Part shown: one piece after another, positions 3,453-32,368 of the stretch
Numbering within the stretch: the first letter of the stretch is position 1
How the letters are laid out: each line of letters opens with the position of its first letter
DNA from: a virus
DNA length: 34,763 nucleotides
IMG/VR virus record: IMGVR_UViG_3300050821_009471
Location: 1-34,763 of that record
Strand: one strand, 5' to 3'
Position numbers and translations under genes: made by a program
Notes under the pieces: model-generated
Databases searched by the model: none
Seen by the model: only the letters and a program-made list of their open reading frames with translations
Told to the model about the DNA's origin: nothing

Positions 3453-5015
3453 TTATACGGGGGTTGCTACTGCAACAATTGCATCTACGGTAATCACTCC
3501 TGTCCCTGCAATAGCTAAATAATACATAGCCGGGACGTAAGCTGAAAAATAAACTACCGTCGCCGCTGCAAGACTTGGAGTAATGCCATTTCCTGTGGGA
3601 GTACTTGTAGGACCAACTCCTAGCGTTACAACGCCTCCGGCTGCCGCAGTGACGTTCACTGAACCTGAAATCGACACATCATAACCTAATGTGTTCTGGA
3701 CAGGAGTTCCAAATGTCGCTGAGAAAGCGGAAGAGGCTGGCGGAGCAGTTCGGAATTTAGAAACCATGAATGTTGAACCGATGGAGAGACCAGTCAATAA
3801 ACCAGATATTCCAGTACTGTTTATAAAATCACAGCCATAGATAAAAATATTAGATGCGGAAGATCCAGATATTGCATTGATCGCAGTGCTGTCCAGAGTA
3901 CACGATATCAATTCGCCTCCCGCTCCTCCATCGAACGTGATGGCCGTATTCCCAGCAGAGAACATGACGCAATCATTAAAAAGACCTGCCGCAGAAGACA
4001 CCACCGTTAAGGTGATGGTATTATTAAAATCGCACTGGTTTGCTACGATCGTGCCACCTGAGTTAAGCACTACTTCAAAAAAAGTACACCCATCAAAAAC
4101 CCAATTGCCTCCAGAGTTTTCGAAAAACCCTCCATTGGATGCGAATTGGCAATTGACAGCAGTTAGATCGCCAGAGAAAGCGACGAGAAATGTCCCACCA
4201 TCTATCACAAAAAGAGATTTCAGGTAGAAAACACTTCCTGTTGGCGAGAGTGTTGGGAAGTTGAAGAGAGATCCTACGGTTACTCTAGCCACGCAATCGG
4301 TCATTTGCAATTGCAGGGAAGTTGTTAAAGCAGAGGATAAAAGATTTCCTGTGCACGCAAAATCTATTCCAGAAGCTCCGATTCCTTGAACAGGTCCGGC
4401 TCCTTGAACAATCGTGTGGTTTCCTGAAATTATAGTAGGTTGGATCGCGGCCGTGTTTTCATTAGTAGGAATTATGCTGCATACATAAACACTAGTATAC
4501 CAAGTGAGGTTTTCTGTATACGTTCCAGGCTGAACATATACCATTCCGCCTCCCGCTGTGTTCGCGGCTGTGATCGCGGCCTGGACAGTCTGATACCCAG
4601 CTCTTCCAGAAGGGCCCACTACAAAAGGAGTGATGGGGAACGCCCCAGCAGACGAGGCGATAGTAAGATTGCCCGCTGATCCGGTAGTGGTGATCAAGCC
4701 TCCCGAACCGACTACGTTGATATTGGCGGCTATGGGAGTTGCAACCCCACTATTGCCAGTAAGCGTGTCTAAAAACCCTGAAGAACTGGCGATTTGATCC
4801 CAGGTAGCCGTTACGGAACCCTGGGAGGACGCCAGAGCAACGAGAATATAAGCTGTTTTGGTCGCAGAGTCTACCCAGATCTGGCCTATTTTAAAAGGAC
4901 CATTAGGCCCTGTGATGTTTGTCGGTGCTGGTGCATTAGGGGAAACAAAGACCGCCCCGGTGAACGCTGTACCATAACCTTGGGTGTATACTGGAAGTGA
5001 TGAGGGTGTAGTCAT
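3453..5015 (-). CDS. Tail fibre with parallel beta-helix (520 aa)
   Basis: Likely tail fibre/tailspike. Residues 1-80 are a conserved base (SSLPVYTQGYGT, GPNGPFKIGQIWV, SQGSVTATW) shared with the 383-aa fibre next door. The middle (about 130-400) has the GYQTVQAAITAAN...G..VYVQPGTYTENL signature and repeated short beta turns of a pectate-lyase-like beta helix. The last ~100 residues (TAPPASSAFSATFGTPVQNTLGYD...GVITVDAIVAVATPV) are again shared with the neighbour and probably trimerise or bind receptor. No catalytic residues can be assigned, so enzymatic depolymerase activity is unproven. Confidence 0.78.
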   Translation of the reverse strand: MTTPSSLPVYTQGYGTAFTGAVFVSPNAPAPTNITGPNGPFKIGQIWVDSATKTAYILVALASSQGSVTATWDQIASSSGFLDTLTGNSGVATPIAANINVVGSGGLITTTGSAGNLTIASSAGAFPITPFVVGPSGRAGYQTVQAAITAANTAGGGMVYVQPGTYTENLTWYTSVYVCSIIPTNENTAAIQPTIISGNHTIVQGAGPVQGIGASGIDFACTGNLLSSALTTSLQLQMTDCVARVTVGSLFNFPTLSPTGSVFYLKSLFVIDGGTFLVAFSGDLTAVNCQFASNGGFFENSGGNWVFDGCTFFEVVLNSGGTIVANQCDFNNTITLTVVSSAAGLFNDCVMFSAGNTAITFDGGAGGELISCTLDSTAINAISGSSASNIFIYGCDFINSTGISGLLTGLSIGSTFMVSKFRTAPPASSAFSATFGTPVQNTLGYDVSISGSVNVTAAAGGVVTLGVGPTSTPTGNGITPSLAAATVVYFSAYVPAMYYLAIAGTGVITVDAIVAVATPV

Positions 5016-5033
5016 TTTTATTTCCCTGTGTTT

Positions 5034-6182
5034 TTATATTGGGGTTGCTATAGCTAGAACAGAATCTACGGTAATAACCCCCGATCCAGCTAAACTCAAA
5101 TAGTAATTCGATGGCACGTAAGCAGAAAAACTGATCAATTGCGCTGCTCCAAGAGCCGGCGTGAGAGGGAAGGTGGAAGGCGTAGAGGTGGAGGCAACGC
5201 CCATTTGCACAGAACCCGCTGTCGCTGCCGTCACATTTATATATCCGGAGATTAAAACATCGTAGCCAAGAGTGTTTTGGACAGGTGTTCCGAAAGTGAT
5301 GGAAAAAGCGCTCGAAGCGGGAGGTGCTGATCTTATAGTGCCTCTTGTGGGAGTCCCGTTAGCCGTAACACCGCAAGAGATATCATCCGTATAAAGGGCA
5401 ACTCTGTTGACTCCAACCCCAGGATTAGCAAAGTATCCTGCGTAAGTGTTAGTAAGAGTTCCTCCGCTACCAGAAAAAGGAGCTACAAAAATCCCTATCG
5501 TTGTGGTGATAGTGCCCGCATTGCTGCCTAAAAAAGTTTGCACAGAAATTGTACTAGCCTGTACGGCAGTTACTCCGCCAGGTAAAGCGAAAGTGGCAAA
5601 CGACTGATACGCGCAGCAGGAACCTGCATTCGAAGTTGGGGAAAAAGTTAGCTGGGAGAAAAGACCGAATTGGTTAGCTCCTCCGTCTAAAGCCAGCATA
5701 GTGCCGAAAAGGTGCACGTCGTACACTGAACTTGCCAGAGGGGATAAAGTAGATCCTCCGTTGGTAGTTGGCGTCGAAGTTCCAACTCCCAATATCCCAG
5801 GCATGATTAGTCCACCAGGTGGGGGAGATATAGCTTGGTAAGATCCTAGGGACACGCCGTTTGTGAGGGCCAGGACTACATCTCCTGTGGTGGGAGAAGC
5901 TGATATTTGATTTGTGGTCCCAGTGACAGATGTAACTCCAGAGGAAACGGCATTCGTCAACTCTTCCCACGTAGCAGTCACCACCCCTTGGGAAGAAGAA
6001 AGAGACGTGAGAGCCCAGTACTTATTGCTCGCTGAATTGACCCAAACCTGTCCAATTTTGAAGGGTCCATTAGGCCCTTGAATATTCTGAATTGTTGGGT
6101 CGACGTTTGATACGAAGGGCGCTCCTGTGAAAGAAGTCCCGTATCCTTGCGTATATACTGGTAATGAAGAAGGACTCGTCAT
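5034..6182 (-). CDS. Tail fibre protein (383 aa), paralogue of beta-helix fibre
   Basis: Shares N-terminal base (SSLPVYTQGYGT, GPNGPFKIGQVWV) and C-terminal tip (SAPPASSAFSITFGTPVQNT...GVITVDSVLAIATPI) with the 520-aa fibre, but has a different central region rich in Gly/Thr beta strands in place of the beta helix. The two genes look like one fibre whose receptor-contact middle was exchanged. I chose the ATG at 6182 (MTSPSS), which matches the paralogue's start and has GGAG eight bases upstream; the longer reading frame to 6272 adds an unrelated basic stretch. Confidence 0.72.
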   Translation of the reverse strand: MTSPSSLPVYTQGYGTSFTGAPFVSNVDPTIQNIQGPNGPFKIGQVWVNSASNKYWALTSLSSSQGVVTATWEELTNAVSSGVTSVTGTTNQISASPTTGDVVLALTNGVSLGSYQAISPPPGGLIMPGILGVGTSTPTTNGGSTLSPLASSVYDVHLFGTMLALDGGANQFGLFSQLTFSPTSNAGSCCAYQSFATFALPGGVTAVQASTISVQTFLGSNAGTITTTIGIFVAPFSGSGGTLTNTYAGYFANPGVGVNRVALYTDDISCGVTANGTPTRGTIRSAPPASSAFSITFGTPVQNTLGYDVLISGYINVTAATAGSVQMGVASTSTPSTFPLTPALGAAQLISFSAYVPSNYYLSLAGSGVITVDSVLAIATPI

Positions 6183-9783: not shown

Positions 9784-9856
9784 GGGCTCGTAGCTCAGTG
9801 GTTAGAGCACTCGACTCATAACCGAGCGCGCGTAGGTTCAAATCCTGCCGGGCCCA
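9784..9856 (+). tRNA. tRNA with CAT anticodon (Met or Ile2)
   Basis: Cloverleaf is clear: 7-bp acceptor GGGCTCG/CGGGCCC, D arm AGCTCAGTGGTTAGAGC, anticodon loop CTCATAA (anticodon CAT) on a stem with one A.C mismatch next to the loop, T arm with GGTTCAAATCC, discriminator A. CCA is not encoded. Elongator Met or tRNA-Ile2 (lysidine-modified) cannot be separated by eye. It stands inside the repeat-rich intergenic block as a single tRNA. Confidence 0.92.
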
Positions 9857-19643: not shown

Positions 19644-21756
19644 CAGTTCTATTACTTTTGTGACCTAACCTTGGCTAGGCGGGGAAACCTCTTCGGATCT
19701 CCCTCTCTGTGTTACCACAGAGATTAGACTATCGCATCTAGTGAAAATGGAACCGCATTTTGAGCACCTTTTTGATTTTTCATCTAGGTGAATCATTATG
19801 TTAATCCCACTGTGATCACAAGTCTCAGGATTTAGTCGTTCAGGCTGAGAATATTTGGATTTAATCATCTCACAAAGCGCTCGTCCAAAGGCTATTTCTC
19901 GACCTTTTAACTGTCCAAACATTTTTTTAATGTTCTTATTTTGCTTGTAAGAAAGATTCATTTTAAATTCCAATGTCATTCTCTTGCCCCTTGTTATCCT
20001 TCAGCTTACGCTGCGAGGAACTCCAAGTCAATTACCCAAGATTTTACTTCGGCACACACTTTACCGAATCGATCCATACCCTCAATGCCTGACATAAATT
20101 TATAGGCCACACTGTTACCGCCTCAGACAGGCGAGCTAGTCATTTCTGCTAGCTTCCGCGGTTTCTGATATATCCGCGGGTCGGACTGTTGCATACCGTG
20201 AAAAGAGACGTTCCCCTTACTCACAGTTCTTCTCGCTCAGTCTCTCACGCTGCAAATAGTGAGACGCTCCCACTACTCGCTTGCGCCTCGTTGCCCATGG
20301 GGGCTTCCGAGTCAATCAGAGAAGATTTTAGAACAACACGTATACTTCTATTGTTCGTATCAAGTGTCGCTGCAACCAAACTGAAGTCAGAGACTCCAAG
20401 GTTGGTTGGGTTGTCACCGTTGTTCCCGCCACCTGCATTGATCTCAGACGCTGCTGAGAGAATGTAGTCGCGGAGGATAAGCATTCTGTTACTTTTGTGA
20501 CCAACCTGCTACTCTTCTAAGAATGTCAATATTCCTAGAAATTTGCTTAGGCACTGTTCTTCTTTCTCTATCGGTCGCTCTTATTTTGTTCGCGATCGAT
20601 ACCTTTCGCATATAGTTGGCGGAACCCCCTCTTCGGAGGATTCTCACTGCCTTCATTTATCCGCAGTGCTCAGACTTTCGAATCCCTTTCGGGCCGGCTC
20701 GCTAAGTCGTTCACGGTGCATGTTCCTATAAGAAACTGAGTCGCGGCATTCGCTGCACTGATATCTGGAAAGAGTCCACAATCCGCAGACGCATTCATAG
20801 ACACCAGGTCTTATTTTCTTCAGTTTACTAATTTCCATACTTCCGCCTTGTCACCCCATCGGGCTTCCAAGTCTATCAGAGTCGGTTTATCGAGGACATT
20901 ATTCTATCCTCGGCTTGACGCATTGCTACCAATTTGGCGCCAAGACATGCTGGCCATAGCTTAGGCAGCCAGCCTTTCGGATACCCAAGCTAATACACCT
21001 TCCTGATCTTGTAATATTACCTGTTCATTTATAATACAACCAGTTCCAAAAAAAGCCATTTGAGCGTCAATTATATCTCTTTGAGGTACTTGAGCTGGTG
21101 GATCAATTCCTGAATTACCTAATTGTATAGTAGGGGGAGTTAAAGCCCTTGGTCTCATAAATCTGCAAGTAGTTCCGCCATTAGCTGGCATAGATACTTT
21201 ATCAGCAATGCATACTGTTACTTTAATAACCTGATACAGTTTAGTTGTATTAGGCGGGGAAGTTCTTCGACATTCCCTCAGCGGCTTTCGTCCACTGCTC
21301 AGACTGTTGCATCCCTTGCGGGTCAACTCGCTCAGTCGTTCACGCTGCTTTCGCTTGCGCCTCGTTGCCATGCCAAAAGGTTTAGGTTTCCGAGTCAATC
21401 AGAGTTGATTTTAATATCCCCAATTAAATGATAAGGATATAATTCATAGTTGGGGTGGGAACATAAAGCCGTTCTGTTACTTAATTATAACCTAACTAAC
21501 TTAACAAGTTAATTTAATTAGGCGGGGAAGCTCTTCGGCTATCCCTCTCACTGTCGCCAATGAGGTCGGACTGTCGCATCACCTTTCGGTGTCTCCTCAC
21601 TCAGTCTCTCACGCTGCTTTCGCTTGCGCCTTGTTGTCCTCTAGGGAGTTCCAAGTCAATCAGAGGAAATTTAACGGCGACACTTTAAGCGTCTATCGCC
21701 GGAGCTAAACTTTGGAGGATCATTGGCCCTAACTGAGAAGTAGTAGTAATTGACAT
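19227..21756 (-). CDS. Major capsid protein, split by five group I introns and one short insert
   Basis: Resembles the N4-gp56-type capsid family. Exons: 21756-21695, 21469-21434, 21210-20906, 20481-20350, 20107-20063, 19643-19227. Joining them and removing 37 nt (20966-20930) gives 960 nt, 319 aa, with no stop. Key recognisable stretches: YVPTPTMNYILIADKVSMPANGGTT (across exons 1-3; residues ~22-47), ERLA|VAMRQAED|LILRDYILSAAS, GDNPTNLGVSD and GIEGMDRFG|TGPVRSAYFMLSS. The ATG has AAGGA eight bases upstream. Each junction restores the expected family sequence, which is the main reason for the chosen sites. The 37-nt insert contains an in-frame UAA after codon 115 and is not explained by the introns. 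Confidence 0.85.
19644..20062 (-). ncRNA. Group I intron 5 (419 nt, with ORF)
   Basis: P1: exon TTCGGT pairs with GCCGAA in the intron, U.G at the splice site. P7 strands GACTA (about 19834-19838) and TAGTC (about 19727-19731). P9 loop CGAAGAG near 19690. 3' end AAGTAATAGAACTG. The P6-P8 region is enlarged and holds a 104-codon ORF. Joining exon 5 to exon 6 gives DRFG|TGPVR. Confidence 0.85.
19665..19979 (-). CDS. Intron 5-encoded small Cys-containing protein (104 aa)
   Basis: Entirely inside intron 5. Basic N-terminus (NLSYKQNKNIKKMFGQLKGREI), helix ALCEMIKSKYS, then a possible zinc site: C at ~53, H at 55 and CSKCG at ~71. No HNH, GIY-YIG or LAGLIDADG motif seen, so homing activity is not supported by motif. 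The SD (AAGGGG) is the ribozyme core sequence ACAAGGGGC, and the final ~30 codons run through P7-P9, so the end may be constrained by RNA and not by protein function. Confidence 0.5.
   Translation of the reverse strand: MTLEFKMNLSYKQNKNIKKMFGQLKGREIAFGRALCEMIKSKYSQPERLNPETCDHSGINIMIHLDEKSKRCSKCGSIFTRCDSLISVVTQRGRSEEVSPPSQG
20108..20349 (-). ncRNA. Group I intron 4 (242 nt)
   Basis: P1: exon GAACAAT pairs with GTTGTTC, U.G at splice. Core CTGATTGACTCGGAA near the 5' side, ACAACG/AGGCGCAAGCG, P7 GACTG (near 20238) with CAGTC (near 20185). 3' end GTAACAGTGTG. Extra stem-loops (GTGGGAGCGTCTCAC and CCGCGG...CCGCGG) enlarge it. No ORF. Splicing joins DTNN|AYKFMSGIEG. Confidence 0.85.
20350..20481 (-). 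CDS. Major capsid protein exon 4 (44 codons)
   Basis: Encodes LILRDYILSAASEINAGGG through DTNN, starting at CTT right after intron 3 (…CAGAATG). In-phase on both sides. The codon before ATC in the genome (CTT) supplies the residue expected between ED and ILRD. Confidence 0.85.
20482..20905 (-). ncRNA. Group I intron 3 (424 nt, with ORF)
   Basis: P1: exon CGAGGAT pairs with GTCCTCG (U.G). P10: 3' exon UUAU with AUAA just upstream of the guide. P7 GACTT (near 20707) with AAGTC (near 20674). P9 loop CGAAGAG. 3' end AAGTAACAGAATG. Peripheral insertion holds a 61-codon ORF. Splicing joins MRQAED|LILRDY. Confidence 0.85.
20653..20838 (-). CDS. Intron 3-encoded zinc-ribbon micro-protein (61 aa)
   Basis: Inside intron 3. 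CVCG at ~18 and CSEC at ~29 form a plausible four-Cys zinc site in a Lys/Arg-rich peptide, starting MEISKLKKIRPG. The SD overlaps the core AAGGCGG. The last ~20 codons (RERLSEPARKGFESL) read through P7/P8, and intron 2's core in the same frame would give a similar RERLSELTRKG, so this half is ribozyme-dictated. Could be a splicing factor, a remnant or a chance ORF; no endonuclease motif. Confidence 0.45.
   Translation of the reverse strand: MEISKLKKIRPGVYECVCGLWTLSRYQCSECRDSVSYRNMHRERLSEPARKGFESLSTADK
20906..21210 (-). CDS. Major capsid protein exon 3 (interrupted)
   Basis: Reads (L)IADKVSMPANGG through WVSERLA, then a 37-nt insert, then VAMRQAED. 305 nt minus 37 leaves 268, in phase with both introns. 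Standard decoding stops at UAA 20963-20961. Confidence 0.8.
20930..20966 (-). other. 37-nt frame-breaking hairpin insert in capsid exon 3
   Basis: Between GCT (20969-20967, Ala) and GTA (20929-20927, Val) of an otherwise continuous ERLA|VAMRQ. The 5' side forms GCUGGC/GCCAGC (20973-20968 with 20954-20949) with a 13-nt loop that holds GCC then in-frame UAA (20963-20961). GCC occurs again at 20938-20936; hopping GCC to GCC restores frame, giving ERLAAKLVAMRQ. Too small for any ribozyme intron. The bypass model is inference. Confidence 0.6.
21211..21433 (-). ncRNA. Group I intron 2 (223 nt)
   Basis: P1: exon TATCCT pairs with GGGATA, U.G at splice. Core CTGATTGACTCGGAA, AGGCGCAAGCG, P7 GACTG (21333-21337) with CAGTC (about 21302-21306). 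P8 hairpin CCCGCAAGGG. 3' end AAGTAACAGTATG. Splicing joins NYIL|IADKV. The frame is open into exon 3, making a misleading 145-aa ORF. Confidence 0.85.
21434..21469 (-). CDS. Major capsid protein micro-exon 2 (36 nt)
   Basis: Encodes (M)LYVPTPTMNYI plus two bases. Only 12 codon-equivalents between two introns; found because it restores AML.VPTP...IADKVSM, which the family shows, and fits P10 of intron 1 (GCUUUA with UAAAGU). Confidence 0.75.
21470..21694 (-). ncRNA. Group I intron 1 (225 nt)
   Basis: P1: exon CGGCGAT pairs with GTCGCCG, U.G. P10: 3' exon GCUUUA pairs with UAAAGU next to the guide. Core CTGATTGACTTGGAA, AGGCGCAAGCG, P7 GACTG (about 21602-21606) with CAGTC (about 21569-21573), P8 CACCGAAAGGTG, P9 loop CCGAAGAG. 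3' end AAGTAACAGAACG. Exon 1 is 62 nt (21756-21695). Confidence 0.85.
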
Positions 21757-21951: not shown

Positions 21952-22623
21952 ATGTCAAATGAGATTGATCCTACAGAAATAGTTGCACTCTATCGAGTGT
22001 GGACTAGCATGCTCTATCGATGCACAAGACCAGACAACAAACAGTACAAAAACTACGGAGGAAGAGGGATTTTTCTCTGCGAAGAATGGATGGATTTCAA
22101 TAATTTTGTTAGAGATGTTGGGAAAAGGCCGTTTGAAGGATGTCATCTGGATCGAACTGACAACGACAAAGGATATAGCAAAGAAAATTGCAGATGGACC
22201 ACCCCAAAGGTAAATCATAGGAACAAGAGGAATAATCGATACTATGACACATCTTGCGGCAAAATATGCCAATCCGAACTCATCGAGAGAATGGGATTTA
22301 CCCGAACTCAATTTAAGAGAGCTATTGAAAAGCATGGAACAGATTGTGTTATCAGAATGTTTGATGAGAACAAAATCCCAACAAAGAAAAAAGTTGTGGA
22401 TTTAGAAGATATTGTAGGAAGAAAATTCGGAAGATTAACGCTAAATTCTGTAGACAGAACATCGAAAACAGGGGCAAGATATCACTGCGAATGTGAGTGT
22501 GGATATAAATCCACCATTACTAGATTCAAATGTCTACGTGGGTTGGCCACTGAATGTAAATCGTGCTGTCGAAAAGGAGACAAAAATCCAAAAAGGAAAT
22601 CTGTATCGAAATCGAGTCAATAA
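21952..22623 (+). CDS. Free-standing HNH endonuclease (223 aa)
   Basis: Resembles the phage HNH/AP2-associated endonuclease family. Visible: YKNYGGRGIFLCEEWMDFNNFVRDVG (residues ~29-54), then LDRTDNDKGYSKENCRWTTPKVNHRNKRNN (HNH-like core, ~63-92), a helix-turn region (ERMGFTRTQFKRAIE), and a C-terminal GRKFGRLT...CECECG...CKSCCRK zinc ribbon. It lies opposite the intron-rich capsid gene, the position expected of a collaborative homing endonuclease. The SD is weak (GGTTGA). Its 3' end is in a perfect inverted repeat. Confidence 0.85.
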   Translation: MSNEIDPTEIVALYRVWTSMLYRCTRPDNKQYKNYGGRGIFLCEEWMDFNNFVRDVGKRPFEGCHLDRTDNDKGYSKENCRWTTPKVNHRNKRNNRYYDTSCGKICQSELIERMGFTRTQFKRAIEKHGTDCVIRMFDENKIPTKKKVVDLEDIVGRKFGRLTLNSVDRTSKTGARYHCECECGYKSTITRFKCLRGLATECKSCCRKGDKNPKRKSVSKSSQ

Positions 22624-22650
22624 ATATACGACTCGATTTCGATACAGATT
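22598..22650. terminator. Perfect 21-bp inverted repeat, bidirectional terminator-like
   Basis: 22598-22618 is exactly complementary to 22630-22650, with an 11-base AT-rich loop. It covers the last codons of the HNH gene and the stop of the convergent zinc-ribbon gene. There is no U-run, so termination is uncertain; a boundary of an inserted homing cassette is another reading. Confidence 0.6.
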
Positions 22651-26669: not shown

Positions 26670-26885
26670 TTAGTATCTGTAACCAGACTTCATTTTGTGA
26701 GATTTAGCCTTGGAGTCTCCCATAGACTGAACCTCTTTGACGCCTTCTGTGGTATCCTTGTATTCAGATCCGAGATGGCCTGAGCCTTCAGCTGAGGAGT
26801 ATTTCTTGGTATGAGTCTTAGAACTCATCGACATTTCGGAAGTGTGTGGCATCCCGCCAAAGTCTGTAATTTTACGGCCCGACAT
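26670..26885 (-). CDS. Small Ser/Lys/Gly-rich head protein (71 aa)
   Basis: Low-complexity hydrophilic: SEMSMSSKTHTKKYSSAEGSGHLGSEYKD, without hydrophobic core, so probably disordered or a nucleoid-like packaging peptide. Located between portal and head-type genes. Not recognised. Confidence 0.5.
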   Translation of the reverse strand: MSGRKITDFGGMPHTSEMSMSSKTHTKKYSSAEGSGHLGSEYKDTTEGVKEVQSMGDSKAKSHKMKSGYRY

Positions 26886-26924
26886 ATTTACCTCGAGGTT
26901 GAGCTTTGAGATCCATTATAGCGT

Positions 26925-27134
26925 TCAAGTAATCTTTTGCAAGAAAGACTCTAACCACTCTGACTTAGCCTGTATTTCAGACTCAGTGAAGCTCTTTTCA
27001 GACCGCAATTCTCGATAACGGGCTTTAATTCCCTTCTTCGCTTCCTGCAAGAGAGGGTCGTTATCGCCGTCGAAAGGGTGAGCCAACAGGACTTTCACGA
27101 TAAACTCTGAGAGGAGCGGTATTTGATCGTTCAT
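26925..27134 (-). CDS. Hypothetical protein (69 aa)
   Basis: Helical (LLSEFIVKVLLAHPF...LLQEAKKGIKARYRELRSEKSF). ATG overlaps the lipoprotein's stop (ATGA). Unknown. Confidence 0.5.
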   Translation of the reverse strand: MNDQIPLLSEFIVKVLLAHPFDGDNDPLLQEAKKGIKARYRELRSEKSFTESEIQAKSEWLESFLQKIT

Positions 27135-27298
27135 GGGGCCTTTGGCACGTCTATGGGCATTACTTTAATGTCTATTCCTTCGTGTTTCTTAATAACTGTC
27201 TCCGTCATCGACTCAAGTTCATTAGTTGCAGCTTTGAAGCATGCATTAAGAGCGAATCCAACGAAGAATACCGATATAGGCCAAGCGTAATATCTCAT
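27131..27298 (-). CDS. Small lipoprotein (55 aa), possible outer spanin
   Basis: Hydrophobic leader (WPISVFFVGFALNAC) with a good lipobox L-N-A-C at residue 19, then a short charged periplasmic domain (ELESMTETVIKKHEG). AGGA seven bases before ATG. Small lipoproteins of this size can be o-spanins, but no inner spanin or endolysin is next to it. Overlaps both neighbours by ATGA. Confidence 0.5.
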   Translation of the reverse strand: MRYYAWPISVFFVGFALNACFKAATNELESMTETVIKKHEGIDIKVMPIDVPKAP

Positions 27299-27525
27299 TT
27301 CTTATCCTCAAAGGGCGTTTTAGGCCTCTCCCAGCAACGAAAGGGACACTTATCTTCGGCTCGTGGGTCATTAGGATCTACGCTACAACCTCCGTTAAGC
27401 CAAAGGTTGCAATCTTTGCAATACCCAGAGTCCCAATCGACGGCATATAGAGAGCTTTTTTTCCCGCATTGAGGGCATAGGGAAGGCTCTATATCATTCC
27501 ATGTTCTCAATCCATTCACTAACAT
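27295..27525 (-). CDS. Zinc-ribbon protein (76 aa)
   Basis: CPQCGKK (residue ~17) and CKDC (~36) form a zinc ribbon; two more Cys near the end. The ATG at 27525 has AGGA eight bases upstream; the upstream GTG at 27531 is less likely. Follows portal directly. Unknown role. Confidence 0.55.
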   Translation of the reverse strand: MLVNGLRTWNDIEPSLCPQCGKKSSLYAVDWDSGYCKDCNLWLNGGCSVDPNDPRAEDKCPFRCWERPKTPFEDKK

Positions 27526-27536
27526 AGTCACTGTCC

Positions 27537-29627
27537 TTACTGTTGCTGCCCACCACTTTGGCTCATAGATGCTAGCATTTGGGCGACAAAATCGTTAGCC
27601 AAAGATTCTTTTTGAGCGTCGCGTTTGGCTATATCTTCTTCTGTCTGGTTGTCACCTTCAAGAGTTTTGAGGTCATTTTGCTTCAAATGCGCTTCCATTT
27701 CCCCATATTTACTCGTAACTTCTACTATTTTAGCAAGCGCTTCCGCCTTAGCCTTAGTAGCTAATGCGTGATTCTTCGTAACTTCAGCTAATCTTTCCTC
27801 GTAAAGACCGAGGTCGGATTGAGCCCTTCCATGCCTTTCGCGTGCGGTCGCAATGTTCGATACCGCTTTGGAATACAGCTCTTTAACTTTGGCCTCTTCA
27901 AGCACACTCGCGACATTCTGCGCATGCTCCGCTTGAGCTGATTGCTGTTGTTCTTGCTGCGCCAGGATCTGAGTGAGCTCGTCTTTTCCTTGGATAACAG
28001 CGCGTTTCGCAATCTCTGATGGGGGGATGATCCCTCCGAGAGAAGCATTGAGGTCCATCCACTGCATAAACTCTTGGTTCTTCTGCGTCGCAGTATTTAG
28101 CCCTTCAGCTACAACCACTTGGTATTTAGCGAAGATACGCGAGTAGAAGTGAGGACTTGGATCTTCGCCGAGGAGCAATCCCACTTTAGCAGCGTTCCAG
28201 TTGTTGAGGATGATGCTGAGCAATTTGCCACCTAGAAGCTTTAGAGAGTAGTCCCACTGGTCAAAGTACTTCTGTAAGACCATGAGGTTCGCTCCCTGCT
28301 TTAAAAGCACGGTAAGTCCAGAGACTTGCTTATCGTCTTGCGCAGACCAGTTCTCTACGTTCACGCCGCTCGTAGCATAGATCAAACTCATAAGCTGATC
28401 GGCAAGAGCCATGTCGGAAGGCGGTACGGCATTGGGAATGATCTTCTCAACGTCGGTCATTTCATAGCCTTCGTTGACCAGAACATCCCAGCCTTGGCCA
28501 GACTTCTTCAGGTTGTCTTCGTTGGCCACAGCCCCGACTTTGCGCTTCCATCCGGTATTGATCGAACTCTCTGATATATCGTGGTTCAGAAGGACTCGGC
28601 GTGAAAAAAGCCACTGCGCTGAGCGCATTGGGCGCACGAGTGAGCGGACGCGGTCATTAAAATAATTTATGTGCGGGTCATAATTCCAAAAAACAGGAAT
28701 AAAAGGGCAATCATCAAAATGTAGAGGGTTATCACCTTGAAACATAAGCTGGTCATTGAGTACCGTCGCAAGTTTCCAAGTGGGCACTTCAACTTCGACC
28801 ACTTGTAGATCTGGAATATTATAAAGGATCTCATCTAACTGTTCCTGGCCTCCGCCAAAGTCAAAGAACTGATTCCTTGCTGGGCTATAAAGGCGCTTCT
28901 TTTTACGCTTCCATCTATACCACACATAAGAAAGAACCATTAAATCATTTCTTGCCATGTTATAATTTTCTGGAAGAAAATAAAAACTACCATATCTCTG
29001 AGGCGTTCCAGACATTGGAGCAATGCTTCCGATACTATCAGGGAACCGGGCTTCAGCTTCGTGCTTGGAGATGTACTCCTGGGTCCATATAAATTCGGCT
29101 TGATTGATATCAGATCTCCAATATGGGTCCATCAAGAAGCTGTTGTATTCCCAGATCTTTAATTTAAGAGATCCCTGAGCAGGATCATCACCTGTATAGT
29201 CCAAGTAGGGTTGGAGTAGAACCATTCCACTAATTGCAGCGAGTTCACAAGCTTTAGAAAACTGCTCATTTATCCCCTCCACATTGGCTACGTGATCGAC
29301 AATTCGAGTGTACTGGTCTGTAGTATGAGGGTCCGCGCCTTCAGTAGGAATGTAGTTAATCGACTTGCGGTGTTGGCGCTGAAATCCACCGACCATATTT
29401 ATGGGCTGTTGTATTATATTGAAATTAAAACGACTGGAATTGTTATTAGTTCCGGTTAACCCAAAGTGTTTGTTAACAAAGTCTTGAGAACCTGCGTAAA
29501 AGAGAGTGTCCACATTGCTTTCGTTCCATCGACTTTGCTCGATTGGCTGGAACTTACTATAGAGGTTGTCAAGCCATTGTCGGACATTTGTTTGATTCGG
29601 CTCATTGGAATTTTGCCATGGAGGCAT
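27537..29627 (-). CDS. Portal protein (696 aa)
   Basis: Large portal of the podovirus type: N-terminal FNIIQQPINMVGGFQRQHRKSINYIPTEGAD, wing and stem regions, LYSPARNQFFDFGG, SLIYATSGVNVENWSAQDDKQVSGL, and a C-terminal helical barrel that is Gln/Ala-rich (QILAQQEQQQSAQAEHAQN). It should form the dodecameric head vertex that docks terminase. Sits between terminase and scaffold. The nearest SD is weak and distant (AGAGG 23 bases up). Confidence 0.85.
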   Translation of the reverse strand: MPPWQNSNEPNQTNVRQWLDNLYSKFQPIEQSRWNESNVDTLFYAGSQDFVNKHFGLTGTNNNSSRFNFNIIQQPINMVGGFQRQHRKSINYIPTEGADPHTTDQYTRIVDHVANVEGINEQFSKACELAAISGMVLLQPYLDYTGDDPAQGSLKLKIWEYNSFLMDPYWRSDINQAEFIWTQEYISKHEAEARFPDSIGSIAPMSGTPQRYGSFYFLPENYNMARNDLMVLSYVWYRWKRKKKRLYSPARNQFFDFGGGQEQLDEILYNIPDLQVVEVEVPTWKLATVLNDQLMFQGDNPLHFDDCPFIPVFWNYDPHINYFNDRVRSLVRPMRSAQWLFSRRVLLNHDISESSINTGWKRKVGAVANEDNLKKSGQGWDVLVNEGYEMTDVEKIIPNAVPPSDMALADQLMSLIYATSGVNVENWSAQDDKQVSGLTVLLKQGANLMVLQKYFDQWDYSLKLLGGKLLSIILNNWNAAKVGLLLGEDPSPHFYSRIFAKYQVVVAEGLNTATQKNQEFMQWMDLNASLGGIIPPSEIAKRAVIQGKDELTQILAQQEQQQSAQAEHAQNVASVLEEAKVKELYSKAVSNIATARERHGRAQSDLGLYEERLAEVTKNHALATKAKAEALAKIVEVTSKYGEMEAHLKQNDLKTLEGDNQTEEDIAKRDAQKESLANDFVAQMLASMSQSGGQQQ

Positions 29628-29693
29628 GTAGAAGCTGATATGTCACCTCTTGTTGAGACGAAGATATCAACTAAAATTTTATTATGGAAGGAA

Positions 29694-29837
29694 CTACTTG
29701 TTGGAGTTGATCTTGACAGTCGGCCATTTAGGTTCTTCATCTTTAGGCTTAGGCTTAGGCTTTCCCGCAAGCGATTCGAATACATCTTTGAGAGGACCTT
29801 TCTTGAGATCGCCGAATAGGTCGTTAACGTCTTTCAT
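29694..29837 (-). CDS. Small basic protein (47 aa)
   Basis: ATG 29837 follows GGTGAAGAAG. Sequence DLFGDLKKGPLKDVFESLAGKPKPKPKDEEPKWPT: helix then Pro/Lys tail. Overlaps the 52-aa gene by 14 bases. Function unknown. Confidence 0.45.
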   Translation of the reverse strand: MKDVNDLFGDLKKGPLKDVFESLAGKPKPKPKDEEPKWPTVKINSNK

Positions 29838-29982
29838 CTTCTTCACCTTTGTGCACAATATTCCAAGCCAGCATAAATGCCACCCTAGCCTCATCATCCA
29901 AAGTAAGCGCCCAGTGAGCTACTTTTGCCTCTTCCGGCCGGTCTTTAATCAGATCGACTGCTTCTTGAACGAGTTGAATCAT
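29824..29982 (-). CDS. Small hypothetical protein (52 aa)
   Basis: ATGA overlap with the DUF551 gene. Helical acidic (VQEAVDLIKDRPEEAKVAHWAL...VAFMLAWNIVHK). Too short for default gene callers. No function can be assigned. Confidence 0.5.
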   Translation of the reverse strand: MIQLVQEAVDLIKDRPEEAKVAHWALTLDDEARVAFMLAWNIVHKGEEDERR

Positions 29983-30218
29983 TTAGGTGGTTCGGGTAAA
30001 GGCATCCAGTGAGTTATTTTTATTTGGTGATAGGAATCATCCCACTGACCTGGAAGAACTCCTCTAGATTGTCCACCGCAATAGTTACAAGACTCCCATC
30101 CTCCCGCTACGCAATAATCCCCATCATTTTTGAATGAATGTATTCCTTCCTTGGGACAATATCCAAGAAATAATTTAGAATCTGGGAATCGATCCTCGAC
30201 GCTAATCCATTCACTCAT
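29979..30218 (-). CDS. DUF551 family protein (79 aa)
   Basis: Begins MSEWISVEDRFPDS and ends ITHWMPLPEPPK, the diagnostic ends of DUF551, a common small phage protein of unknown function. Two Cys near residue 45 (CNYCG) may bind metal. Confidence 0.75.
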   Translation of the reverse strand: MSEWISVEDRFPDSKLFLGYCPKEGIHSFKNDGDYCVAGGWESCNYCGGQSRGVLPGQWDDSYHQIKITHWMPLPEPPK

Positions 30219-30469
30219 TTCTGCGAAGCCTCCAAATCAATCCAGTCCCAGTCGGTAAACTCCTTGAAGATATCCTTCCAGCAGGGAAGCCTCTCCGTAT
30301 CTATAGTTATGATAGCCACGGAGTCTAGTAAAGTCTCGCGCGTCATGCGCCGATGAGCGGGCTTCTTGGCCATCATTCCCTCCAAGATAGTTGGAACGCT
30401 CTCCAAGTCATCCAGAATCCATTTGCTTGGAGGAAGTCGATAGAGGGTGCGGACGTAGTATTTGATCAT
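30215..30469 (-). CDS. Hypothetical protein (84 aa)
   Basis: Overlaps the DUF551 gene by ATGA. YYVRTLYRLPPSKWILDDLES, then a second half with DSVAIITIDTERLPCWKDIFKEF. Not recognised. Confidence 0.5.
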   Translation of the reverse strand: MIKYYVRTLYRLPPSKWILDDLESVPTILEGMMAKKPAHRRMTRETLLDSVAIITIDTERLPCWKDIFKEFTDWDWIDLEASQK

Positions 30470-30519
30470 TTATTCCTCTAAAAATTCCCCAGCGTGATTT
30501 CGATAAAACTTTGTGAGGT

Positions 30520-31029
30520 TTATGCTCGCTGGGGCGCTAATTTAAATCTTCGTCTCTTTCCTGTCTTTTTGTCGATCGTTATGAGCTCTTCGGATTTCGG
30601 AGGATATTTTTCTGCCACTGAAAATGAGACTTTGATGCCTTCTTTGCATAGGTTATCAATCTTTACGTATAGGGCATCTAGACGACCTTCAATTCCGTCC
30701 ATTCGCTTTTGAATCTCTTCTACCTTCCAGGTGATTGAATTGATGCTCATAAATGTGTCGATTAGAGCTTTCAGGTTCATCTTATCCGAGTAAATATCGA
30801 GTGCCGCGACAAACTCCTCGATAGATTTAATAATCTGTCTATCGTCAATCTTCAAAGGAGAACTGAATTGAGTAATGAAGTTTTGAAGAATCCTGTCGGG
30901 GCCAATCAATTTACTAAGGCACTGAATAGGATGAATCAAATTGATCACATGAGTTTCAAGGTCCCCTATCTTTCGATAAATTTCGTTGAACTGAGCTGCT
31001 TTTTCGTCTTTTTTCGCTTCTTCTGTCAT
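30520..31029 (-). CDS. Coiled-coil hypothetical protein (169 aa)
   Basis: ATGA overlap with the terL stop. Amphipathic helices with heptads (EIYRKIGDLETHVINLI, VEEIQKRMDGIEGRLDALYVKID) and a basic tail (KKTGKRRRFKLAPQRA). Could be an oligomeric head or terminase accessory protein; unknown. Confidence 0.6.
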   Translation of the reverse strand: MTEEAKKDEKAAQFNEIYRKIGDLETHVINLIHPIQCLSKLIGPDRILQNFITQFSSPLKIDDRQIIKSIEEFVAALDIYSDKMNLKALIDTFMSINSITWKVEEIQKRMDGIEGRLDALYVKIDNLCKEGIKVSFSVAEKYPPKSEELITIDKKTGKRRRFKLAPQRA

Positions 31030-31943
31030 CTAAACCCAAAATCTGATGTTCGTTTAAAATCGGTAATCCCCTGAGGTCCCTTAGGGCCCCCACCCAAGGT
31101 CTTTCCGTCGGTATTCCCATTGTCGCCCCAACCTAGGTTCTTTTTGTGCCCGAAGGCTGTATAGAGGCAGTACCTAAGTCCATCGACCGCATGATCGTTC
31201 TTCTTGACAGGCTCCTCAATTCCTCTTTCAGCCTTAGCGCTGTCCCATACATATGATTCGATCTCTCCAATGAGATTGGGACAACACTCCACCACTTTAA
31301 GCTCATGATTAGAAATGAGGTTAGCAACAAACGTAATGCCAGGGAAGACGTCGTTCTTCGCTTGTATAACGCGCATTCCTCTCCTCTTGAGCTCCACCTC
31401 AAAGGACTCCGCAGATGGGTCAAGGTAGATTCCTCTAACATTATATCCCTCGATAAACTGTTGCAAATCATCCGCAAGCTCCGAGTTTAGTTTCTGTCTG
31501 TAGGTTTTCTTGCTATCCCAGTAAAACTCTTTTTCCACCCAAAAGTGAGGACTATGGGTATTGTTATGACCCACAAGCACAGCCGCAAAGGCATTGTGTA
31601 TTCCGTAATCAACGCCAACAAAAAAGTTATCGGCATAATGTGGAGCGCGATCCAAGACGTGCGAATCGCGGCTAAAATCACTATAAATGGCACCTTCCGC
31701 AGCAACCCACTCGCCCAGAATGTAGCGACGATAGAAGAGGCCCGTATATTTGCTCTTAAGCTCATTCTTCTTATCTTCGGACAGAGCGGGATTGTCATCA
31801 ACGGTGAAGTGCAGAGAGTAGCAATAACCAGGATCTGAAGAGTTAATCAACCTCGTTTTCACTGGGTGCACAGGCGAATTCGGGTTACAAGTGGCGATCA
31901 TTTTCGACCAATCATGACTGAGGCGAGTAGTAAGCATGTCCAC
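31026..31943 (-). CDS. terL: Terminase large subunit, C-terminal part (nuclease domain)
   Basis: Gene-finder version of the 3' half: starts at MDML but in-frame coding extends upstream to GCT at 32009 (AIQGNTHSLAYVDE, Walker B). Motifs: CNPNSP (coupling motif, SAT-like), VGVDYG (nuclease acidic residue), YLDPSAES, and KNDHAVDGLRYC (last metal-ligand region). With the N-part it makes a 430-aa enzyme that packages DNA. The true start is in the upstream ORF; see the 50-nt insert. Confidence 0.85.
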   Translation of the reverse strand: MDMLTTRLSHDWSKMIATCNPNSPVHPVKTRLINSSDPGYCYSLHFTVDDNPALSEDKKNELKSKYTGLFYRRYILGEWVAAEGAIYSDFSRDSHVLDRAPHYADNFFVGVDYGIHNAFAAVLVGHNNTHSPHFWVEKEFYWDSKKTYRQKLNSELADDLQQFIEGYNVRGIYLDPSAESFEVELKRRGMRVIQAKNDVFPGITFVANLISNHELKVVECCPNLIGEIESYVWDSAKAERGIEEPVKKNDHAVDGLRYCLYTAFGHKKNLGWGDNGNTDGKTLGGGPKGPQGITDFKRTSDFGFR

Positions 31944-32368
31944 GAAATTATAAGGGATAGTAGTAAGCTCGTCGACATATGCAAGTGAGTGGGTGTTGCC
32001 TTGGATAGCTCAAATTTCCAGCCCTTCGCCCCCCACCAATTAAGGCAGGGGGCGTCGGGCCGAACTGACCCTTCATCGTGCGCTCCGATTACGCGCACCT
32101 GCTTATCACCGATAATAAGCGTCTGCGTTCCAGGCTTCCAGATACAGTAGCCCCTAAGTATTTCGTCCGTCAAGAACTTAACAGCGTTTGTTTTAATCGC
32201 CCCAAAAGAGTTGCCGATCATGATGATCTTGCTATCGGGACAGTTGTGAACAAGTTCCACGAACCTGATAAGTGTCGCGTGTGTTTTCCCACTGCGCACA
32301 GATCCGTGAGCGATGTTAATCTTCGCTACTGACTCGTAGATGAATTTCTTTTGCTTTTCAGAGAGCAT
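31898..32368 (-). CDS. terL: Terminase large subunit, N-terminal part (ATPase domain)
   Basis: First 103 codons (to CGG at 32060) encode the ATPase start: GSVRSGKT (Walker A, ~21-28), IIMIGNS, and VIGAHDEGSVR. Beyond 32060 the reading is of the 50-nt insert and then out-of-frame sequence to 31898. No good SD before ATG 32368 and an overlapping plus-strand start region suggest unusual regulation. Confidence 0.85.
   Translation of the reverse strand: MLSEKQKKFIYESVAKINIAHGSVRSGKTHATLIRFVELVHNCPDSKIIMIGNSFGAIKTNAVKFLTDEILRGYCIWKPGTQTLIIGDKQVRVIGAHDEGSVRPDAPCLNWWGAKGWKFELSKATPTHLHMSTSLLLSLIISWTCLLLASVMIGRK
32010..32059 (-). other. 50-nt frame-breaking hairpin insert in terL
   Basis: Lies between CGG (Arg) and GCT (Ala) of an expected GAHDEGSVR|AIQGNTHSLAYVDE. 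Outer stem 32064-32057 with 32024-32017 (8 bp), GA/AA internal loop, inner stem 32054-32044 with 32037-32027 (11 bp), loop TTAATT. No slippery site; a TGA sits in the resume frame just before GCT. Possible hop from GCC (32053-32051) to GCT. Inference. Confidence 0.65.

What the first reader, a model, noticed from the sequence alone, without database searches (positions are those of the whole stretch)
32010..32059. 50-nt hairpin insert breaks the terminase large subunit between Walker A and Walker B
The N-part (GSVRSGKT...VIGAHDEGSVR) and C-part (AIQGNTHSLAYVDE...) join exactly if 50 nt are removed, giving a normal-sized 430-aa TerL. The insert and its flank fold into a near-continuous hairpin (8 bp, tandem G.A-type loop, 11 bp, TTAATT loop). 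-1 frameshifting does not fit: no slippery heptamer and a TGA just before the resume point. A coding gap of this size in an essential gene recalls T4 gene 60 (50 nt) and mitochondrial byps. Matching-codon options are GCC to GCT (Ala), or GGC 32023-32021 to GGC 32000-31998; neither is as clean as in T4.
Basis: partly seen in the sequence, partly recalled or inferred. Interest (0 to 1): 0.92.

Follow-up and report, generated by a model that had tools for sequence, protein, structure and literature searches.

The report
Hairpin insert splits phage terminase gene
A 50-base hairpin that no relative carries breaks the reading frame of this phage's essential DNA-packaging gene and fits no known way of being skipped, while the capsid gene of the same phage has another short frame-breaking insert that looks like a new kind of core-less self-splicing intron.

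Summary
TerL (minus strand) is split by exactly 50 nt (32059-32010). Every relative that covers the junction, among about 100 TerL loci, lacks the insert and reads straight across R|A. The insert is the strongest hairpin in the window.

No matching take-off/landing codons give the native product, there is no stop after take-off, and the best pair (GCC to GCT, +2 residues) is matched by 81% of shuffled inserts.

A surprise lies in the same genome. The major capsid gene has six introns that restore a 319-aa protein exactly. Five carry a group I-type core. The sixth is only 37 nt, with perfect P1/P10 guide pairing but no core. Several relatives carry such core-less inserts, each 24-54 nt upstream of a full intron.

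The TerL insert fails that test at its native junction, and no core lies near it. A weak 38-nt candidate (p about 0.03, product +4 residues) remains.

Verdict: a real, private, frame-breaking insert, most likely a lesion or assembly-level variant (0.45). Removal from RNA or ribosomal skipping is not excluded (about 0.4 together).

The parts
32060..32368 (-). terL 5' part (frame 0), with Walker A GSVRSGKT
   Evidence: translation; PHROG terminase hits; 67-79% aa identity to L082-L086
32010..32059 (-). 50-nt out-of-frame insert (placement may slide by 2 nt)
   Evidence: absent from all relatives that cover the site
32017..32064 (-). hairpin: 8 bp, 2x2 loop, 11 bp, UUAAUU loop; its base uses native codons GTT CGG
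   Evidence: z -6.2; rank 1 of 6942 windows
31026..32009 (-). terL 3' part (frame -1), with Walker B LAYVDE and the nuclease domain
   Evidence: PHROG terminase hits
32009..32046 (-). weak candidate mini-intron, 38 nt, U|...|G, frame-restoring, product +4 aa
   Evidence: score 21, p about 0.03 under two nulls; not accepted
20930..20966 (-). comparison case: 37-nt core-less mini-intron in the major capsid gene
   Evidence: guide GCUAUGGCCAG pairs 11/11 with the exon junction; exact restoration of 319 aa
19227..21756 (-). major capsid gene in 7 exons: 21756-21695, 21469-21434, 21210-20967, 20929-20906, 20481-20350, 20107-20063, 19643-19227
   Evidence: relatives L094 and L101 intact
21558..21665 (-). 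group I-type core 1 (the others: 21404-21291, 20881-20662, 20321-20173, 20037-19716)
   Evidence: covariance model R1, E 5.6e-27 to 4.5e-10; none near TerL

Best explanation
The 50 nt are a recent, private insertion of a hairpin-forming sequence into an otherwise intact terL. As assembled, the gene cannot give TerL by any known rule. The most likely reading is that this contig carries an inactivating or assembly-level variant: a lesion allele, a minority haplotype or a mis-join. On this reading it is not an evolved recoding device. Shown: the exact 50-nt frame break, its absence from relatives, the hairpin, and the lack of bypass or group I signals at the native junction. Inferred: that nothing restores TerL from this allele.
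For: All homologues covering the site are uninterrupted. No matched take-off/landing codons give the native product; chance-level matches otherwise. No guide sequence complementary to the native junction (p 0.28-0.69), and no group I core near TerL. No second copy of the hairpin in 2.9 million viral contigs by the tight patterns, nor in GTDB genomes. No ATG/GTG/TTG start for the C-part before GTG 31943, which lies after Walker B.
Against: A broken terL is hard to understand in the consensus of a phage from a clade without tyrosine integrases (the window and 17 virus relatives of 39-42 kb). Apart from the insert the 430 codons are flawless and under constraint. The same genome holds another short frame-breaking insert, in MCP, that is evidently tolerated. 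The hairpin's wobble pairs favour the mRNA strand.
Confidence: 0.45

Rival explanations
1. Core-less group I-type mini-intron. The insert is cut out of the mRNA by a group I core supplied in trans, or from far downstream on the same late transcript. The candidate is 38 nt, 32046-32009: 5' exon ...GCCCCCU|, guide GGUGGGGGGCG, terminal G. It leaves a 434-aa TerL with PDAPS in place of A.
For: Mini-introns of 35-68 nt exist in MCP of this phage and its relatives. The candidate has U|...|G borders, 10/11 guide pairs, the guide 9 nt in, and restores the frame; p about 0.03 under shuffled and hairpin-preserving nulls. Five cores are present in the genome.
Against: All nine MCP mini-introns tested restore the native protein exactly with 10-11/11 pairing; this one adds 4 residues at a site with no length variation. 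Sites of this score occur about 1.3 per kb. No core lies within 10 kb, whereas the MCP mini-introns have one 24-54 nt downstream.
Confidence: 0.17
2. Programmed translational bypass as in T4 gene 60: ribosomes take off before or inside the hairpin and land at or after GCT 32009, for example GCC 32053 to GCT 32009, giving SVRPDAIQG.
For: 50 nt, a strong mRNA-strand hairpin that includes upstream codons, exact flanks. Bypassing has been suggested for the terminase of Streptomyces phage Hau3 (PMC5009743).
Against: No codon pair gives the native product; the +2 pair is a chance match (81% of shuffles have one as close). No stop after take-off; no convincing 5' stem-loop next to the junction.
Confidence: 0.13
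3. Removal or skipping by another, unknown mechanism acting on the RNA hairpin.
For: The hairpin is the strongest in the contig and strand-biased; terL is otherwise intact in a clade without integrases.
Against: No positive signal for any particular mechanism.
Confidence: 0.12
4. Two-part terminase: the two halves are made as separate proteins that work together.
For: Both halves are open frames.
Against: The C-part has no ATG/GTG/TTG before GTG 31943, downstream of Walker B, and by eye no Shine-Dalgarno sequence there, so the ATPase would lack Walker B.
Confidence: 0.04

Closest known systems
T4 gene 60 bypass element (reviewed in PMC5009743)
   Same: 50-nt frame-breaking insert with a hairpin in an essential phage gene; [quoted passage not shown]
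   Different: No matched codons, no stop after take-off, no product shown; the flanks do not restore the native protein by any cognate hop.
Proposed terminase bypass of Streptomyces phage Hau3 (cited in PMC5009743)
   Same: Terminase gene.
   Different: Hau3's case is tied to a UUA codon; the insert here has no in-frame UUA.
Mitochondrial byps of Magnusiomyces (PMC5009743)
   Same: Short blocks inserted into coding sequence that break frames; matched codons are not always present there.
   Different: One copy here, in a phage gene; no relaxed mitochondrial decoding.
Group I introns in phage capsid genes, e.g. mycobacteriophage LittleE (PMC3706429)
   Same: Capsid gene interrupted; exon ends in U, intron ends in G (applies to the MCP introns of this window, not to TerL).
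   Different: LittleE has a single ~820-bp intron. Here one gene has five introns with a core plus a core-less 37-nt one.

Membership tests
[quoted passage not shown]
   none at delta 0; GCC/GCT gives +2 aa and is chance-level
T4 gene 60-type programmed bypass (TerL insert) | Stop codon directly after the take-off codon | tested here: not met
   frame 0 open to 31898
T4 gene 60-type programmed bypass (TerL insert) | Hairpin in the coding gap | tested here: met
T4 gene 60-type programmed bypass (TerL insert) | Nascent-peptide signal and fused protein product | not testable with these tools
   needs translation assays or proteomics
-1 ribosomal frameshift (TerL) | Slippery heptamer in the overlap of the two frames | tested here: not met
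   read by eye; a -1 shift inside the insert meets TGA 32012
Core-less mini-intron (clade-specific, defined here), MCP 20966-20930 | P1 with U.G plus P10 to the native exon junction, terminal G, no core | tested here: met
   11/11 pairs; no core inside; exact 319 aa
Core-less mini-intron (clade-specific, defined here), TerL insert | P1/P10 to the native exon junction, 5' exon ending in U | tested here: not met
   p 0.28-0.69; exon ends in C or G in every placement
Core-less mini-intron (clade-specific, defined here), TerL insert | Full group I-type intron 24-54 nt downstream | tested here: not met
   no core near TerL
Group I intron (the five longer MCP introns) | Core helices P4-P8 with covariation, U|...|G borders, U.G in P1 | tested here: met
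Group I intron (the five longer MCP introns) | Match to Rfam's group I family | tested here: not met
   no hit, so a divergent subgroup or a related kind
Group I intron (the five longer MCP introns) | Splicing in RNA | not testable with these tools
   no RNA data
Mobile palindromic element (REP/MITE-like), TerL insert | Other copies in phages or hosts | tested here: not met
   none (limited to close matches of the arms)

The most novel reading that the evidence does not exclude
The TerL insert is removed or skipped after transcription. Either it is a core-less, hairpin-type intron whose ribozyme core is supplied by introns of another gene, or it is a bypass that needs no matched codons.
Probability: 0.38. 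Interest if true: 0.9.

Novelty: new variant of a known kind. Interest (0 to 1): 0.6.

Why it matters
If this allele still makes TerL, it would be either a strong T4-like coding gap in a terminase or a case of RNA surgery in trans. The comparison case found on the way may matter more. In this phage clade the capsid gene carries 35-68-nt introns that hold only the guide (P1/P10) and no ribozyme core, always next to a full group I-type intron. One relative has a LAGLIDADG-like homing-endonuclease ORF inside such a core-less intron. That would be a division of labour in which one ribozyme core splices two introns. It would also make testable the old suggestion that T4's 50-nt gap is a degenerate group I intron.

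Tried and rejected
- Tight DNA searches for further copies of the hairpin: none. A loose palindrome pattern gave only unrelated GC-rich hairpins.
- Search for another contig of this strain across the insert with a 30-mer just downstream: none. The tool warns that very near records may be left out.
- Rfam on the TerL region at E <= 10: nothing of substance.
- 5' stem-loop next to the junction beyond codon constraint: no.
- Defective prophage: weakened by the absence of tyrosine integrases in the window and 17 virus relatives of 39-42 kb; two of them have a small resolvase.
- Terminator: none found near the insert.
- Target-site duplication: none by inspection.
- Literature: no held paper describes core-less group I mini-introns, but the library lacks most subscription journals.
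- The joined TerL was not sent to structure prediction, because only unaltered sequences may be submitted.

Full report
OBSERVATION. The window is an IMG/VR contig of a tailed phage (G000, 34,763 bp). On the minus strand, terL starts at 32368 and reads ...VIGAHDEGSVR in frame 0 to 32060. It resumes in frame -1 at GCT 32009 (AIQGNTHSLAYVDE...) and ends at 31026. Leaving out 50 nt gives one stop-free 430-aa TerL; both halves match terminase large subunit families. The placement of the 50 nt can slide by 2 nt without changing the protein. Frame 0 stays open through the insert to 31898. The C frame opens only after TGA 32012-32010.

RELATIVES. Five phages with 75-82% identical TerL (L082-L086) cross this point with no insert. 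So do about 80 more at 33-50% (a few of these contigs start downstream of the site) and three at 62-64%. In a diverse alignment the site has no length variation. The insert is therefore an addition private to this contig. Both halves evolve under strong constraint (non-synonymous differences 0.15-0.27 per site, synonymous differences near saturation). A second contig of the same strain (L002, 99.98% over 4.8 kb) covers only 26870-31683 and does not test the insert.

HAIRPIN. The stretch 32064-32017 forms 8 bp, a 2x2 loop, 11 bp and a 6-nt loop: -40.1 kcal/mol, z -6.2. It is the strongest of 6942 60-nt windows in this contig. All four imperfect pairs are G.U on the mRNA strand; the complement folds at -28.2. 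This hints at an RNA-level history but is not proof. No related hairpin was found in phage or bacterial collections with tight patterns. The loose pattern returned unrelated palindromes.

BYPASS. Compared with T4 gene 60 (features from PMC5009743): length and hairpin fit. Matched codons, stop after take-off and native product do not. The best option, GCC 32053 to GCT 32009, adds two residues; a match at least as close arises in 81% of shuffled inserts. Upstream structure next to the junction is within the range of synonymous shuffles. There is no ATG/GTG/TTG start that would give a C-part with Walker B.

A COMPARISON CASE IN THE SAME GENOME. Comparing all genes with relatives showed that the major capsid gene is also interrupted. 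Relatives L094 and L101 have uninterrupted genes. In the window the gene lies in seven pieces. With borders set by the rules 'exon ends in U, intron ends in G', the pieces join to exactly 960 nt and 319 aa, the length of the L094 protein. Five of the six introns (223-424 nt) share a core. An alignment of 12 such cores from this clade predicts 19 pairs, which I assign to P4, P5, P6, P7 and P8, with compensatory changes in 9 of them. A covariance model finds five significant cores in the window, all in MCP and none near TerL, and more in relatives. Rfam does not recognise them, so 'group I-type' rests on this structure and on the U|...|G borders with a U.G pair at the 5' splice site.

CORE-LESS MINI-INTRONS. 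The sixth MCP intron is 37 nt (20966-20930), far too short for a ribozyme. It contains GCUAUGGCCAG, which pairs 11 of 11 with the exon junction CUGGCU|GUAGC: P1 with U.G at the splice site, and P10. Relative G004 has a 46-nt insert at the same place with GCGAU/GUCGC, a compensated P10 change. A survey of 87 MCP loci found such inserts of 35-68 nt at three sites (q88|89, q104|105, q114|115) in the window, G004, L108 (a contig binned with a Simkania MAG), L190, L192, L193, L194 (with its twin L195), L196 and L197. The guide pairs 10-11 of 11 in all nine tested, p <= 0.001 each. G008 carries the same kind of guide in a 974-nt insert that holds a LAGLIDADG-like ORF and no core hit. Where it can be read, a full intron follows 24-54 nt downstream, and every one of these loci has at least one core hit in MCP (weak in L190, L193 and L196). 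The simplest reading is that the neighbour's core splices both. That is inference; no RNA data were available.

IS THE TerL INSERT ONE OF THESE? At its native junction, no: the exon does not end in U and the best guide is at chance (p 0.28-0.69). An exhaustive search over shifted borders gives one frame-restoring candidate, 32046-32009 (38 nt), with 10 of 11 pairs, U|...|G and the guide 9 nt in. It would add four residues (PDAPS for A) and has p about 0.03 under shuffled and hairpin-preserving nulls. Background sites of that score occur at about 1.3 per kb. There is no core within 10 kb. I keep it as a rival, not as the answer.

WEIGHING. Against a simple lesion: the gene is essential and otherwise perfect, the window and 17 virus relatives of 39-42 kb have no tyrosine integrase, and this clade harbours short inserts in another essential gene. 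For a lesion or assembly-level variant: the insert is private, and every tested mechanism for its removal fails on a defining feature. I put 0.45 on lesion or artefact, 0.17 on a mini-intron, 0.13 on bypass, 0.12 on another post-transcriptional mechanism and 0.04 on a two-part terminase, leaving the rest open. These numbers are judgement, not computed. Read mapping alone would settle most of this.

Noticed in passing
window 21756-19227 (minus strand): Major capsid gene with six introns: five with a group I-type core that Rfam misses, and one 37-nt core-less intron (20966-20930) with perfect P1/P10 pairing. The exons join to exactly 319 aa.
   Followed up: yes
L108, L190, L192, L193, L194, L195, L196, L197, L097 (G004): Other phages of the clade carry 35-68-nt core-less introns in MCP at three sites, each with 10-11/11 guide pairing and followed by a full intron. 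Possible core sharing between neighbouring introns.
   Followed up: partly
L104, about 4736-5709 (G008): A 974-nt core-less intron at MCP site 104|105 holds an ORF with two LAGLIDADG-like motifs (read by eye) in front of its guide: a possible mobile form of the mini-intron.
   Followed up: partly
L082 and L083, TerL after residue ~377: TerL of these close relatives is interrupted in frame by what looks like an intein (NDHA|CFTGDTIISLL...).
   Followed up: no
window 21952-22623 (+): 223-aa ORF that looks HNH-like by eye, opposite strand, just upstream of MCP; no Pfam hit.
   Followed up: no
window 22598-22650: Perfect 21-bp inverted repeat with an 11-nt loop, probably a terminator.
   Followed up: no
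window 9784-9856 (+): tRNA-Met (CAT) gene in the phage, found by ARAGORN and Rfam.
   Followed up: no
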